Part shown: piece by piece, positions 23,567 to 52,569 of the stretch
Layout: the number at the start of each line of letters is the position of its first letter
Numbering within the stretch: position 1 is the first letter of the stretch
Assembly: GCF_900631615.1 (NCBI RefSeq)
Contig: NZ_LR131273.1
Location: forward strand, 310,001 to 374,000
Direction of reading: 5' to 3'
DNA from: Tsukamurella paurometabola
GTDB taxonomy: Bacteria; Actinomycetota; Actinomycetes; Mycobacteriales; Mycobacteriaceae
DNA length: 64,000 nucleotides
Notes under the pieces: generated by a model
Told to the model about the DNA's origin: nothing
The model's database searches: none
The model's input: the letters and a program-made list of their open reading frames with translations, nothing else
Position numbers and translations under genes: made by a program

Positions 23567-23623
23567 GGGTGGACACCTTAGCGATGCTCACACCCGTTGC
23601 GCGAACCGCCGCGCATCTGGACC

Positions 23624-24388
23624 ATGGAGCGGGTGACTGCAGCACAGACGACCGCCCCCGACCACTCCGCCCTGCGCTCGGCGGTGTCGGGAGCACGCGC
23701 GATCGTCGACGTCGGCGTCGTCGTCGCGGTGCTGGTCGCGACCAACCTGGTCGCGCATTTCACGGGCAGCTGGGCCGCCCTGCTGGCGGTTCCGGTGTCC
23801 GCGGTGCTGCTCATCGCCATCGCCCGGCACCGGGGCCTGGACTGGCACGAGCTGGGCCTCGGGCGCGAGCACTGGCGTTCCGGCGCGAAGTACGCCGCCG
23901 CGGCCGTGTTCGTGGTGGCGACGGTGATCGTGATCGGCGCGCTCATGCCGGTCACGCGCGGCCTGTTCCTCAACGACCGCTACGCCACGTTCTCGACCGC
24001 GATCATCGCGTCGATGGTGATCATCCCGCTGCAGACGGTGATCCCCGAGGAGCTCGCCTTCCGTGGCGCGCTGCACGGCACCCTGTCGCGCGCGATGCGC
24101 TTCCGCTGGGTGGTGGTCACGGGGTCGCTGCTCTTCGGTTTCTGGCACATCGCCTCGTCGCTGGGCCTGACCAGCGGCAACGCCGGCCTGACCAAGATCC
24201 TCGGCGCCGGCCCGCTGGCGCAGGTCCTCGGTATCGCGGGCGCCGTGGTCGCGACCGCCTTCGCGGGCTGGGTGTTCACCTGGCTCCGCTCCCGCAGCGG
24301 CTCCCTCATCGCTCCCATCGCCCTGCATTGGTGCCTCAACGGCGCGGGCGCTCTCGCCGCCGCCTTCGCCTGGCAGCTCCTGCGCTGA
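23624..24388 (+). CDS. CPBP/CAAX-family intramembrane metalloprotease
   Basis: A roughly 254-residue polytopic membrane protein of the Abi/CAAX protease family. Seen: PEELAFRGALHG (motif 1, EExxxR-like), FGFWHIASS (motif 2, FxxxH) and the C-terminal HWCLNG (motif 3), which supply the metal ligands. Bacterial members process peptides or protect against bacteriocins; the substrate is unknown. ATG 23624 (MERVTAAQ) is chosen; an upstream TTG and a downstream GTG are possible. It is divergent from the PimE-like gene. Confidence 0.88.
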   Translation: MERVTAAQTTAPDHSALRSAVSGARAIVDVGVVVAVLVATNLVAHFTGSWAALLAVPVSAVLLIAIARHRGLDWHELGLGREHWRSGAKYAAAAVFVVATVIVIGALMPVTRGLFLNDRYATFSTAIIASMVIIPLQTVIPEELAFRGALHGTLSRAMRFRWVVVTGSLLFGFWHIASSLGLTSGNAGLTKILGAGPLAQVLGIAGAVVATAFAGWVFTWLRSRSGSLIAPIALHWCLNGAGALAAAFAWQLLR

Positions 24389-24425
24389 CCCGCGCCGTCG
24401 CGCCCGCTCGCTGCGCTCGTGGCTC

Positions 24426-24512
24426 TCTCCCTAGCGGGACTGCCGTCTCCCTAGGTCCATGGACATGGGGAATGCACGACACGCCAGGGCGCAGCACGTC
24501 CCGCTAGGGAGA
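24426..24512. repeat. Structured hairpin repeat, copy A
   Basis: 87-bp element with a perfect 15-bp outer inverted repeat (TCTCCCTAGCGGGAC at 24426-24440; its complement at 24498-24512). Inside are the palindrome GTCCATGGAC, a GGGGAATGCACGAC block and a small CGCC/GGCG stem. Copy B at 25626-25706 shares the outer arms and core in the same orientation. It lies between the convergent ends of the CAAX and DUF559 genes. It resembles a REP/MITE-like repeat; no transposase is present. Confidence 0.75.
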
Positions 24513-24578
24513 TCGGACGGTGCCGGCGAGGCCGAGCAGGCATTCCCGCGAGGGGGCGTCCGACGGTGCCTGCGGGTG

Positions 24579-25505
24579 TCAGCCGGGGAACCGCGGGATC
24601 GATTCGATCACGCCAGTGTTGAACATCTGCGTGGTCAGGATCGAGTAGAACCGCTTCCGGTCGAGCAGGTCCTCCCACTTCCAGTGGCACACGGTGATCC
24701 CGATTGTGGCGAAGTCGCTGTCGCGTCGTTGCTCGTACCGGCGACGGTCCGCGTCCGAGCGGTACTTGTCCTCCCCGTCGAACTCCCCGACGAGCCTGCC
24801 CCAGCAGAAGTCGACGTGGTACGTCCGCCCCCTGATCCGGAACGTGCGCTGCAACTGCGGTGCCGGCAGCTTCCACTGGATCATCCGAGCCCGCGACCAC
24901 GACTCCCCCGCGGATTCGCTGCCCTCCACGGAGTCCGCGAGCGCGCGCATCACGGTTTCGCTACCCGTCCGCCTGCCGAGCGCGGTCACCACCCGCACCA
25001 GCTCCGCGAGCGGCACCGTCGGACGATCCGAGGGCGTGGGCACCCGCGGGACCCGCCGCGCAGCGTCGATGAGGACGAGGGCCTGCTCGTAGTCGCCCGC
25101 CATCGCACAGTCGATCGCCGTCCGGGCGAGCGAGGTGACCCGGATCCCGTCGAGGACCGTCACGTCCTCGGGCGGCAACGGTCGTGGGTGGACGTGCCGC
25201 TTCCCGCTGACCAGACCTCCTTTGTGGCGATCGTCGATCGTGGTGTGCACCCGGGAGTGGTCGGGCCTGAGCACGGGCAGCCCCCAGAGGACCGCGGCAC
25301 TCTGGTGGCTGATCACTCCCCATCCCCCGACGGTGCCGGCCGCCCGCACCATCCGCTCGTACTCGATCCACGCCTCCCCGACGGACGCATCGGTGTAGAT
25401 CGTCGGCCACAGCATCCGCAATTTCTTGGCCCGGATCGCCTGCCTGATCCCGTTGCGCGTCCACCCCTGCGCGAGCAGCAGATCGCGCGTCATCAGTTCC
25501 CCCAT
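24579..25505 (-). CDS. DUF559 (Vsr/MutH-like) endonuclease-domain protein with AbiEi-like N-terminus
   Basis: A 308-residue protein. N-terminal part (MTRDLLLAQGWTRNGIRQAIRAKKLRMLWPTIY) is an HTH like that of AbiEi-type type IV antitoxin relatives, followed by ISHQSAAVLWGLPV and VTSLARTAIDCA. The C-terminus (HVDFCWGRLVGEFDGEDKYR, then RRRYEQRRDSDFATIGITVCHWKWEDLLD) is the DUF559 very-short-patch-repair-like nuclease fold with D..E..K-type acidic residues. Such genes are multi-copy in many mycolata; role unknown. ATG 25505 or 25493 could start it; the latter has a GGGGGA in front. It is bracketed by hairpin repeats A and B. Confidence 0.82.
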   Translation of the reverse strand: MGELMTRDLLLAQGWTRNGIRQAIRAKKLRMLWPTIYTDASVGEAWIEYERMVRAAGTVGGWGVISHQSAAVLWGLPVLRPDHSRVHTTIDDRHKGGLVSGKRHVHPRPLPPEDVTVLDGIRVTSLARTAIDCAMAGDYEQALVLIDAARRVPRVPTPSDRPTVPLAELVRVVTALGRRTGSETVMRALADSVEGSESAGESWSRARMIQWKLPAPQLQRTFRIRGRTYHVDFCWGRLVGEFDGEDKYRSDADRRRYEQRRDSDFATIGITVCHWKWEDLLDRKRFYSILTTQMFNTGVIESIPRFPG

Positions 25506-25625
25506 GGAGCCGATGCTGCCGCTCCGGCGCCTCCCGCCTGCCGGGCCGAGCCGCCGAATCGGCCGTCCAATCCACAGGACCGCGGTCATCCACAGGCGCT
25601 CGCGCTCCGCCCCGCGCACGTTCTT

Positions 25626-25706
25626 CCCTAGCGGGGCGGCGGCCTCCCCATGGCCATGGACCTGGGGAATGCACGACGCGCCATGGCGATGCACGTCCCG
25701 CTAGGG
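25626..25706. repeat. Structured hairpin repeat, copy B
   Basis: 81-bp relative of copy A: outer arms CCCTAGCGGG (25626-25635) and CCCGCTAGGG (25697-25706), internal palindrome CCATGGCCATGG, the shared GGGGAATGCACGAC block, a CGCCATGGCG palindrome and CACGTCCCGCTAGGG. It lies between the MFS stop and the DUF559 start. Sequence differences from copy A keep the stems paired in most places, suggesting that folding matters. Confidence 0.75.
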
Positions 25707-25752
25707 GAGGGCCCGACGGTGGCGGCGCTCGCGAGGGCCCCGCGTGCGCGCC

Positions 25753-26973
25753 TCAGCCCGCGCTCGACGGTGCCTGCGCCTCCGGCTCGCGCGCCGCGGG
25801 TGCCACGGCGACGGCCACGGCGACCGCCACGAGCACCAGGATCAGTGCGTAGAGCAGCGTCACGTACTCACCCAGCGCGCCGATGATCGGCGGGCCGGCG
25901 AGGAACGAGAGGTAGCCGATCGTCGAGACCACCGATACGCGCGCCGCCGCCATGCGCGGGTCGTCGGCCGCGGCGGACATTCCGACGGGGAAGCCGAGCG
26001 AGGCGCCGAGGCCCCACAGCGCGACGCCCACGTAGGCCGCGGAGGTCGGGCCGAAGATCACCAGCGACAGGCCGACGAACGCGAGGCCGCCGCAGGCCCG
26101 CAGCGTGCGTACCCGCCCGAACCGGTCGAGCACGCGTGTGCCGGCGAACCGGCCGATGGTCATGAACGTGACGAAGACCGCGAAGGTCAGGGCGCCGACG
26201 GTCTTCGACGTGCCGTGGTCGTCGACCATCGCCAGGGCCAGCCAGTCGTTCGCGCTGCCCTCGGTGAGCGCCATGCCCAGCACCATGAGGCCGATGAGCA
26301 GCGTGCGGGGCTCGCGCCAGACGGCGAGGCGCTCGCGGCGCGAGACCGGCGCGTGATCGTCGGCGTCGTGCGCCTCGTACGGAACGTGCCGCAGGGCGAA
26401 CCACCCGGCGGCGAGCAGGACGCCGTTCACCACCAGCAGGTGCGGCAGCAGGGGCACGTGGGCGGCCTGGGCCGCGGCCGCGGTGAGCGCGCCGGCGACG
26501 GTGCCCAGGGAGAATCCGGCGTGGAAGGCGGGCATCACGGTGCGCCCCAGGGCACGCTCGTTCTCCGCGCCGGAGAGGTTCATGCACACGTCGGTGATGC
26601 CGTGCGAGAGCCCGACGAGGATCAGCGGCAGCAGCGTGAAGGCGTAGTTCCCGGACTGCGCACCCGCCGCGGCGGCGATCATCGTGACGCCGAGCGCGGG
26701 CAGGGTCACCGCGAGCACGCGGCGCGCCCCGAAGCGGGCGGCCAGCGCCCCGGAGCCGACGAGCCCCACGACGGAGCCGACCGCGAGGCCGAAGGTCAGG
26801 AGCGCCACCTGCAGGGTGGTCGCGCGAAGGTCGTCGCGCACCTGGGGCAGTCGCCCGATGTAGCTGGCGAAGGTGAGCCCGCTGAGCGCGAAGATCACGA
26901 AGACGCCGTTGCGCCAGGCGAGCACCGAGCCCCCTGCCGCACCCGTCTTCTGCTCCTGGAAATCCACGCTCAC
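25753..26973 (-). CDS. MFS transporter, YbjJ-like
   Basis: A 406-residue, 12-helix major facilitator. Landmarks: FASYIGRLPQVRDDL at the start, GLSHGITDVCMNLSGAENERALGRTVMPAFHAGFSLGTV in helices 4-5 (typical of the FucP/YbjJ-type group), and ALTEGSANDWLALAM. Substrate unknown, possibly a sugar or sugar derivative given the LacI regulator encoded divergently. GTG start at 26973; the operator palindrome lies 12 bases upstream, so the LacI protein very probably represses it. Confidence 0.88.
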   Translation of the reverse strand: MSVDFQEQKTGAAGGSVLAWRNGVFVIFALSGLTFASYIGRLPQVRDDLRATTLQVALLTFGLAVGSVVGLVGSGALAARFGARRVLAVTLPALGVTMIAAAAGAQSGNYAFTLLPLILVGLSHGITDVCMNLSGAENERALGRTVMPAFHAGFSLGTVAGALTAAAAQAAHVPLLPHLLVVNGVLLAAGWFALRHVPYEAHDADDHAPVSRRERLAVWREPRTLLIGLMVLGMALTEGSANDWLALAMVDDHGTSKTVGALTFAVFVTFMTIGRFAGTRVLDRFGRVRTLRACGGLAFVGLSLVIFGPTSAAYVGVALWGLGASLGFPVGMSAAADDPRMAAARVSVVSTIGYLSFLAGPPIIGALGEYVTLLYALILVLVAVAVAVAVAPAAREPEAQAPSSAG

Positions 26974-52473: not shown

Positions 52474-52569
52474 TGGCGGAGGTGGACGGGAATCGAACCC
52501 GCCAGGCCGAGATACTCGACCTCACCGGTTTTGAAGACCGGGGGGCCCACCAGGAACCCGGACACCTCC
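52474..52569 (-). tRNA. selC: tRNA-Sec (anticodon TCA)
   Basis: Minus-strand 96-base tRNA. The anticodon stem-loop reads CCGGTCTTCAAAACCGG with TCA in the loop; the 5' end GGAGGTG pairs with CACCTCC before discriminator G and an encoded CCA. A long GC-rich variable arm (GTCGAGTATCTCGGC) and T-arm GCGGGTTCGATTCCCGT are characteristic. TATGTT (52582-52577) ends 7 bases before the 5' end and is a likely -10. Confidence 0.96.

What the first reader, a model, noticed from the sequence alone, without database searches (positions are those of the whole stretch)
24426..25706. DUF559 nuclease-like gene bracketed by two copies of a multi-stem hairpin repeat
Two related elements (24426-24512 and 25626-25706) flank the DUF559 gene in the same orientation. 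Each has an outer inverted repeat (CCCTAGCGGG/CCCGCTAGGG, extended to a perfect 15 bp in copy A), an inner palindrome around CCATGG, a common GGGGAATGCACGAC block and a small third stem, so each could fold as a branched cruciform. Differences between copies largely keep pairing. A Vsr-fold nuclease gene bounded by structured repeats recalls REP-associated transposase (RAYT) layouts, but with a different nuclease. This could be an undescribed repeat-plus-domesticated-nuclease cassette.
Basis: partly seen in the sequence, partly recalled or inferred. Interest (0 to 1): 0.78.

Follow-up and report, generated by a model that had tools for sequence, protein, structure and literature searches.

The report
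Nuclease genes bracketed by matching repeats
A gene for a probable DNA-cutting protein sits between two copies of a structured repeat, and most of its tested relatives in other bacteria of the same order have the same layout with a different repeat each, which suggests an undescribed kind of gene-plus-repeat unit.

Summary
The window is Tsukamurella. The element is 83 bp with 8 copies here, found so far only in Tsukamurella, mostly just past stop codons (54 of 59 copies within 110 bp). Six of eight are not near the nuclease-like gene.

Relatives of that gene have the same layout with other repeats. In equal 350-bp flanks 69 of 79 tested relatives (Tsukamurella and 27 other genera, 22 of these with a hit) have a matching repeat pair; control genes 1 of 237 and 0 of 155. 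Seven-mers recur at 19-20 bp inside the repeats. The 5' and 3' repeats of a gene are more alike than same-side repeats of sister species on average in 25 of 25 loci. DnaA-box-like sites lie upstream in 57 of 78 loci, 1 of 234 controls.

The protein joins an AbiEi-like domain to a weakly supported nuclease domain. No Y1 transposase in 16 genomes: not a RAYT. Best reading: a self-recognising nuclease cassette with dispersed solo arrays. Binding, cutting, mobility are inferred.

The parts
24428..24510 (+). Element A: 83-bp palindromic array on the 3' side of the nuclease-like gene, between convergent genes (half-sites, assigned by me, at 24428, 24448, 24466, weak 24485, 24505)
25625..25707 (+). 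Element B: second copy, on the 5' side of the gene and 45 bp past the stop codon of the MFS gene (half-sites, assigned by me, at 25625, 25645, 25663, weak 25682, 25702)
24579..25505 (-). Gene of the cassette: AbiEi-like N-terminal part plus C-terminal domain with a PD-(D/E)XK/Vsr-like (DUF559-like) residue pattern; ATG at 25505, another in-frame ATG at 25493
25568..25594 (+). Two DnaA-box-like sites (TTATCCACA-like; 25568-25576 with 2 mismatches and 25586-25594 with 1, 18 bp apart) between B and the start codon
   Evidence: sequence; enrichment
25753..26973 (-). Neighbour (not part of the cassette): MFS transporter; next to the CPBP gene without the cassette in four congeners
23597..24388 (+). 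Neighbour (not part of the cassette): CPBP intramembrane protease

Best explanation
A and B are the two recognition arrays of one cassette of a widespread kind: array, DnaA-box-like sites, gene for an AbiEi-winged-helix/nuclease-like protein, array. Each array is a palindrome built of short half-sites spaced 19-20 bp (in the window family TCCCYA twice, then TRGGGA, a weak site, and TAGGGA). Most likely the cognate protein binds the half-sites through its AbiEi-like domain, represses its own promoter from the 5' array, and its nuclease domain acts on DNA carrying the arrays. That action would copy or convert arrays: it keeps the 5' and 3' arrays alike and has seeded solo arrays into spaces just past stop codons, where insertions are tolerated. 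The DnaA-like sites would tie expression or action to chromosome replication. SHOWN here: bracketing, phasing, joint change of the two arrays, DnaA-box enrichment, dispersed solo copies, empty sites, sequence-level constraint. INFERRED: binding by the cognate protein, autorepression, nuclease activity, mobilisation, replication coupling.
For: Bracketing in equal 350-bp windows: 69 of 79 loci (29 of 31 in Tsukamurella, 40 of 48 elsewhere) against 1 of 237 and 0 of 155 control genes; with 550 bp 70 of 79 against 3 of 229 and 0 of 148. All four family members found in the own genome are bracketed, by different repeats (the window and 591336 repeats share 41 bp at 80%). In other genera 7-mers recur at 19 bp (171) and 20 bp (49), 0-22 at every other offset from 8 to 43; 31 of 34 loci show it, letter shuffles 4.9 on average, 10 at most. 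The 5'/3' similarity within a cassette beats the mean of same-side repeats of other species in 25 of 25 loci and every one of them in 16 of 25. TTATCCACA with at most one mismatch in the 260 bp upstream: 57 of 78 against 1 of 234; 0 of 52 other window-family copies have one within 150 bp. D, ExD and K are invariant in 22 and in 31 relatives. AbiEi proteins bind several inverted repeats in their own promoters (PMC7319586, passages). Six of 8 copies here are solo. Solo copies of other cassette families turned up at or near the same intergenic places in other species. Empty sites. 53 of 83 columns are at least 93% conserved over 49 copies, while the 25 variable ones agree at 0.651 between copies at the same site, close to the 4-fold sites of the MFS gene for most of the closer species pairs. 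The next gene downstream is convergent in 15 of 20 loci, against 74 of 251 control genes.
Against: Copies in two species without the cognate gene at this place (G003, G004) match the conserved columns as well as copies in species with it (0-1 deviations), so constraint does not obviously depend on that gene, unless the loss is recent or a paralog serves. Cassettes at least 70% alike are all at syntenic places (31 of 31 pairs), so no cassette was caught moving. Few dispersed copies of other families were seen in the limited sequence held. No target-site duplication was recognised by eye. Nine or ten of 79 loci lack a detected pair, some pairs are short or far from the gene (for example L138, L294, L297, L299), and L132, L300, L313 and L314 have a pair but no 19/20-bp signal. 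The nuclease domain has only weak profile support and the structure model failed (pLDDT 38). The 25-of-25 result is inflated to some degree because segments were chosen by their 5'/3' match; L138 was left out of it.
Confidence: 0.6

Rival explanations
1. Plain autoregulation: the protein is an orphan AbiEi-type repressor. The 5' array is its operator, the 3' array a second operator (for example for DNA looping), and solo copies are decoys, a small regulon or relics. No mobility.
For: AbiEi and Rv2827c bind multiple inverted repeats in their own promoters (PMC7319586, passages). The 5' array ends 120 bp upstream of the start codon. Cassettes at least 70% alike are syntenic. Joint change of the two arrays follows if one protein must bind both.
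Against: Copies sit mostly at gene 3' ends: 34 convergent, 22 tandem, 2 divergent, 1 undetermined of 59. A conserved nuclease-like core is unexplained. Presence and absence of solo arrays at shared places, and other families' arrays at or near the same places, point to dispersal.
Confidence: 0.25
2. The elements are bidirectional transcription terminators or 3'-end hairpins, spread as ordinary intergenic repeats; the gene was caught between two by chance.
For: 54 of 59 copies are within 110 bp of a called stop codon, 34 of 59 between convergent genes; stable folds.
Against: Constraint is on sequence, with no base-pair covariation at the variable columns tested. Bracketing of the gene family by unrelated repeats in other genera cannot be chance. 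A terminator does not need 19-bp phasing.
Confidence: 0.08
3. MITE-like remnants of a conventional DDE or tyrosine transposon whose autonomous copy is lost; the AbiEi-nuclease is a passenger.
For: Short, terminal inverted repeats, about 8 copies, presence and absence at shared places.
Against: Y1_Tnp was found in 0 of 16 genomes. In a list of arm matches in 16 genomes I saw no obvious pair that would mark an autonomous parent. The same gene family recurs with unrelated repeats. Other transposase families were not searched.
Confidence: 0.05

Closest known systems
REP/BIME palindromes with RAYT (REP-associated tyrosine transposase) genes, 'REPtrons'
   Same: Enzyme gene bracketed by two copies of a palindromic repeat; solo copies dispersed in intergenic places; different enzyme lineages with different repeats (the RAYT side partly recalled, partly PMC3733652 passages).
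   Different: Y1 transposase in 0 of 16 Tsukamurella genomes; repeats are mostly 60-140 bp phased arrays, not 20-40-bp hairpins; few copies per genome; DnaA-like sites upstream of the gene.
AbiE type IV toxin-antitoxin (AbiEi/AbiEii; Rv2827c/Rv2826c)
   Same: AbiEi-like DNA-binding domain; several inverted repeats upstream of the gene (PMC7319586, passages).
   Different: No neighbour recognised or annotated as AbiEii toxin in the window or in three annotated loci (one neighbour there is a hypothetical protein); C-terminal nuclease-like domain; arrays also on the 3' side and dispersed; 19-20-bp phasing rather than 23-bp repeats 3-13 bp apart.
CGTC-tagged REPs without a known mobilising enzyme (PMC3733652)
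   Same: Dispersed palindromes whose mobilising enzyme was unknown in 2013.
   Different: Described there for five phyla without Actinobacteria (passages); 8-9-bp stems, much shorter; here an enzyme gene is linked.
Iteron-type plasmid origins (recalled, no call)
   Same: Winged-helix protein, roughly 19-22-bp phased binding sites, DnaA boxes beside them.
   Different: No replication-initiator domain among the family matches (where one member has a chance-level RepB_primase_C hit at 0.058); nuclease-like domain instead; two separate arrays around the gene.

Membership tests
RAYT/REP (REPtron) | HuH/Y1 transposase (PF01797) encoded | tested here: not met
   0 of 16 Tsukamurella genomes; controls ring in 5 of 14 named genomes
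RAYT/REP (REPtron) | enzyme gene flanked by two copies of the repeat | tested here: met
   69 of 79 loci within 350 bp
RAYT/REP (REPtron) | solo copies dispersed in intergenic spaces | tested here: met
   window family 6 of 8 copies; other families only sampled
RAYT/REP (REPtron) | 20-40-bp hairpin with an unpaired GTAG or CGTC tag | tested here: inconclusive
   length differs (83 bp); the letters CGTC stand beside the right arm in part of the copies but vary (columns 70-73); tags as defined in PMC3733652
AbiE type IV toxin-antitoxin | AbiEi-type antitoxin domain | tested here: met
   PADLOC AbiEi 22 of 22; Pfam AbiEi_4 at E<=0.1 12 of 22 and 25 of 31
AbiE type IV toxin-antitoxin | adjacent AbiEii/DUF1814 toxin gene | tested here: not met
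   window neighbours are MFS and CPBP genes; no neighbour annotated so in three loci; the other loci were not annotated
DUF559 / Vsr-like nuclease | significant profile match | tested here: inconclusive
   window protein none at E<=1; PF04480 1 of 31, best 0.0015, PF18741 2 of 31, best 0.00082; PDB 3hrl_A E 0.91
DUF559 / Vsr-like nuclease | catalytic acidic and lysine residues conserved | tested here: met
   D, ExD and K invariant in 22 and 31 relatives; catalytic role inferred
MITE of a DDE transposon | target-site duplication and an autonomous parent with the same ends | tested here: inconclusive
   no duplication recognised by eye; no obvious parent among arm matches in 16 genomes
Known Rfam RNA | match above gathering score | tested here: not met
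   only tRNA-Sec in the window

The most novel reading that the evidence does not exclude
A previously undescribed class of REP-like element driven by an AbiEi-nuclease instead of a HuH transposase: the protein recognises its own 19-bp-phased palindromic arrays, cuts or nicks DNA at them in step with chromosome replication (DnaA boxes), and spreads or converts arrays into gene-end spaces. It has diversified into very many cassette-specific repeat families across the order of Tsukamurella.
Probability: 0.35. Interest if true: 0.92.

Novelty: categorically new. Interest (0 to 1): 0.82.

Why it matters
A 2013 survey linked GTAG-tagged palindromic repeats to RAYT enzymes and left the mobiliser of the other large group unknown (PMC3733652, passages). 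Here an unrelated, weakly annotated protein family is tied to its own repeats in Tsukamurella and 22 of 27 other genera tested, by four regularities. Each cassette offers a matched protein and DNA-site pair that can be tested in vitro, and the natural diversity supplies many specificities for studying how such a protein and its array change together. It would also explain part of the intergenic hairpins of these genomes. I rate it categorically new because each known kind that it resembles fails or leaves open a defining feature (see Membership tests); a reader who takes the plain repressor reading would call it a new variant.

Tried and rejected
RAYT: rejected, no Y1_Tnp in 16 genomes. Structured RNA: no Rfam match; RNAalifold on eight copies shows two pairs with a two-sided change, and in 49 copies none of the pairs tested exceeds shuffled letters. 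Terminator alone: see rivals. Homogenisation of copies within a genome: not seen, copies within a genome are no more alike (0.843) than copies at different sites of different genomes (0.841). 'Copies decay where the gene is gone': not supported. Copy number goes with the bracketed gene in four sister pairs on one gene tree (G005 9/G003 2, G000 8/G004 4, G002 8/G010 4, G009 4/G012 0), but four pairs are too few and other genes were not compared. Cassette movement within the genus: no example. Viral relatives: none found by two peptide patterns. Plasmids: three records of one species that carry housekeeping genes, so they look like chromosome pieces; two of the three loci have a strong pair, the third a 48-bp match; they are not in the 79. 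Structure prediction: too poor to search. The first genome contigs pattern had a wrong gap and found nothing; repeated with the right gap. Rows dropped: 4 of 63 model matches as reverse-strand duplicates; 10 of 59 copies from the column statistics; L134 from all cassette counts after (contig-end artefact); L306 (truncated) from the promoter counts; L138. as run gave 28 of 30 loci and 3 of 239 control genes; two of those three are cassette genes themselves. Searches used wider flanks for cassettes (600, 550 bp) than were used for controls (350 bp, 400 bp); one search repeats all with equal windows. One search was cut in its middle (part of site S7 not seen).

Full report
THE ELEMENT. A (24428-24510) and B (25625-25707) are two of eight 83-bp copies in the genome (4.70 Mb, one contig). 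A covariance model (R1) found matches in 10 of 61 genomes: the own one and 9 of 15 congeners, and none of the 45 genomes outside the genus. An exact pattern in the collection of 84,980 species genomes gave 19 stretches, all Tsukamurella (four named species and one unnamed strain). A looser arm pattern in 401 family genomes gave 10 Tsukamurella and one unrelated sequence. No Rfam family matches.

WHERE COPIES SIT. Of 59 copies from ten genomes, 55 fall into nine groups by shared flanks, four are single. A simple gene caller puts 34 between convergent genes, 22 between tandem genes, 2 in divergent gaps and 1 undetermined; 54 of 59 lie within 110 bp of a called stop codon. Nine anchor stretches located the same places in 16 genomes. 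From species without a called copy there I fetched 78 stretches, anchored on one side: none has a match to the model up to E 0.1. By eye many are short gaps between stop codons, others hold other repeats (its middle was cut). The bracketed gene is missing from between its neighbours in four congeners, where the MFS and CPBP genes are adjacent (G007, G010, G012, G014); in G010 a stretch of about 65 bp with arm-like ends remains.

HOW COPIES EVOLVE. In 49 aligned copies 53 of 83 columns are at least 93% conserved and 25 are below 85%. Copies at the same place in different species agree at 0.651 of the variable columns, other pairs at 0.556-0.564; none of 500 label shuffles reached this. Four-fold sites of the MFS gene agree at 0.60-0.87 among eight closer species, mostly 0.65-0.70, and at 0.48-0.57 with G008 and G009. 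So the variable columns drift by descent about as neutral sites do while the rest are held. Column classes were defined on the same data, so the figure for conserved columns is not independent; the whole-element figure is (0.871 for copies at the same place). None of 13 tested column pairs pairs significantly more than shuffled letters: it is the sequence that is held.

THE GENE. The protein (24579-25505, minus strand) matches AbiEi profiles (PADLOC 1.6e-14), as do all 22 members of an alignment of relatives that includes it. The C-terminal half has an invariant D...ExD...K core. In an alignment of 31 (28 from other genera), PF18741 (REase) hits 2 and PF04480 (DUF559) hits 1, weakly; the only solved structure listed is 3hrl_A, an endonuclease-like protein, at E 0.91, aligned over this region. 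I call it nuclease-like; activity is inferred. In two congeners (G015, G008) the gene matches in two pieces, as a frameshift would give.

THE KEY TEST. All 16 Tsukamurella genomes have members of this family, 77 matches in all, distant ones included. I compared left and right flanks of the 30 for which loci were given and of two more in the own genome. In 41 chosen genomes outside the genus, 27 (27 genera) have relatives, 59 matches in all; I tested 48. With one artefact dropped, 79 loci remain. In equal windows of 350 bp, 69 of 79 have a flank-to-flank match of at least 40 bp (E up to 0.001): 29 of 31 in Tsukamurella, 40 of 48 elsewhere; control genes of 600-1500 bp gave 1 of 237 in Tsukamurella loci and 0 of 155 in the 20-kb surroundings of 20 cassettes. 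With 550 bp it is 70 of 79 against 3 of 229 and 0 of 148. At least one locus is bracketed in 22 of the 27 other genera. The 31 Tsukamurella loci fall into 10 syntenic groups, 9 of them bracketed, so the independent cases in the genus number about ten. The four members in the own genome are bracketed by four different repeats.

COMMON ARCHITECTURE. The matched segments are 42-321 bp (median 78), 80% identical at the median, and fold well (median z -3.8; 74% of 140 below -2). In 52 of them, not all independent, seven-base words recur in direct orientation at 19 bp 249 times against 9 in letter shuffles, at 20 bp 71 and at 38 bp 55 times. Other genera alone (34 of 40 bracketed loci, those of 55-150 bp): 171 and 49 against 0-22 at every other offset; 31 of 34 loci against 4.9 in shuffles. 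Unselected 300-bp flanks show it too: ratio to background 5.9 at 19 bp, control gene flanks, partly coding, 0.6. In the window family I place half-sites at 1, 21, 39, 58 and 78; the fourth is weak (only GG is invariant).

THE PAIR CHANGES TOGETHER. In five syntenic groups with more than one species, the 5' and 3' repeats of a cassette are more alike than the mean of same-side repeats between species in 25 of 25 loci, and more than every one in 16 of 25. In one group (L130, L131, L140) three species have three different sequences, each matched on both sides. Segments were picked by their 5'/3' match, which favours this result; L138 was left out.

DNAA-LIKE SITES. In the 260 bp upstream of the matched gene, TTATCCACA on either strand with at most one mismatch occurs in 57 of 78 loci (28 of 31 in Tsukamurella, 29 of 47 elsewhere), exactly in 24 of 78; control genes 1 and 0 of 234. 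The median distance is 79 bp, and successive sites are most often 18 bp apart. The 52 other window-family copies have none within 150 bp. Downstream flanks rarely carry even the six-base core (5 of 78). The window has two such sites (25568-25576, 25586-25594) with 2 and 1 mismatches. The name DnaA box is recalled.

DISPERSAL. The window family has six solo copies here. In the limited sequence held, copies of other cassette families turned up at or within about 330 bp of the anchors of the same places in other species (G011 and G014 at S6, G003 at S8, G011 at S3) and past the MFS gene in G014 and G001. The gene next downstream of a cassette is convergent in 15 of 20 loci, against 74 of 251 control genes.

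WHAT SPEAKS AGAINST. Copies in G003 and G004, which lack the bracketed gene, are as well kept as elsewhere. No cassette was seen to move and no target duplication was recognised. Nine or ten loci have no pair. The window family itself is not concentrated at the gene (2 of 8).

MECHANISM. Known AbiEi proteins bind several inverted repeats in their own promoters (PMC7319586, passages). A protein with this domain, a 5' array and a 3' array that change together, and a conserved nuclease-like core is most simply a protein acting on its own arrays. Why solo arrays exist is best explained by copying or conversion at array-bearing ends, as in REP/RAYT units, but by another enzyme. The plain repressor reading remains open at about one in four.

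PRIOR WORK. Searches for DUF559 (14 papers; listing and abstract starts seen), Tsukamurella repeats (9 papers listed), REP or palindrome plus nuclease terms, and Vsr or AbiEi plus repeats showed no report of this association in the titles and abstract starts listed. Searches found far more papers than the 10-15 listed, and subscription papers are not held, so absence from print is not established. Two papers were read in passages only (PMC3733652; PMC7319586).

Noticed in passing
window 52474-52569 (-): Selenocysteine tRNA gene (anticodon TCA), found by ARAGORN and Rfam.
   Followed up: no
window 24403-24424 and flanks of many copies: A letter-mirror motif like CTCGCT(T/G)CGCTCG lies just before many copies, and CCGACGGTGCC just after; the latter forms hairpins of its own elsewhere. 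Both look like further short repeats of the genus.
   Followed up: partly
L186, L189, L188, L182 downstream of the MFS gene: Next to copy B some species carry tandem duplications of one outer arm plus flank, for example a unit of about 43 bp repeated in T. asaccharolytica and of about 33 bp in T. conjunctivitidis.
   Followed up: no
L094:4040-4103: A near-perfect palindrome of about 62 bp sharing the core CTCCCCATGTCCATGGACATGGGGAG but with other arms, between convergent genes.
   Followed up: no
L262-L274 (site S10): Between a ferredoxin-like gene and its convergent neighbour many species keep a different hairpin (CTTAACAGCGTTAGCCC... arms), where T. ocularis has a window-family copy.
   Followed up: no
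NZ_LR134451, NZ_LR134463, NZ_LR134465 (L307-L309): Records labelled as Tsukamurella tyrosinosolvens plasmids carry housekeeping genes (tatB; rpmG, secE, hadAB; pdxS), so they are probably pieces of the chromosome.
   Followed up: no
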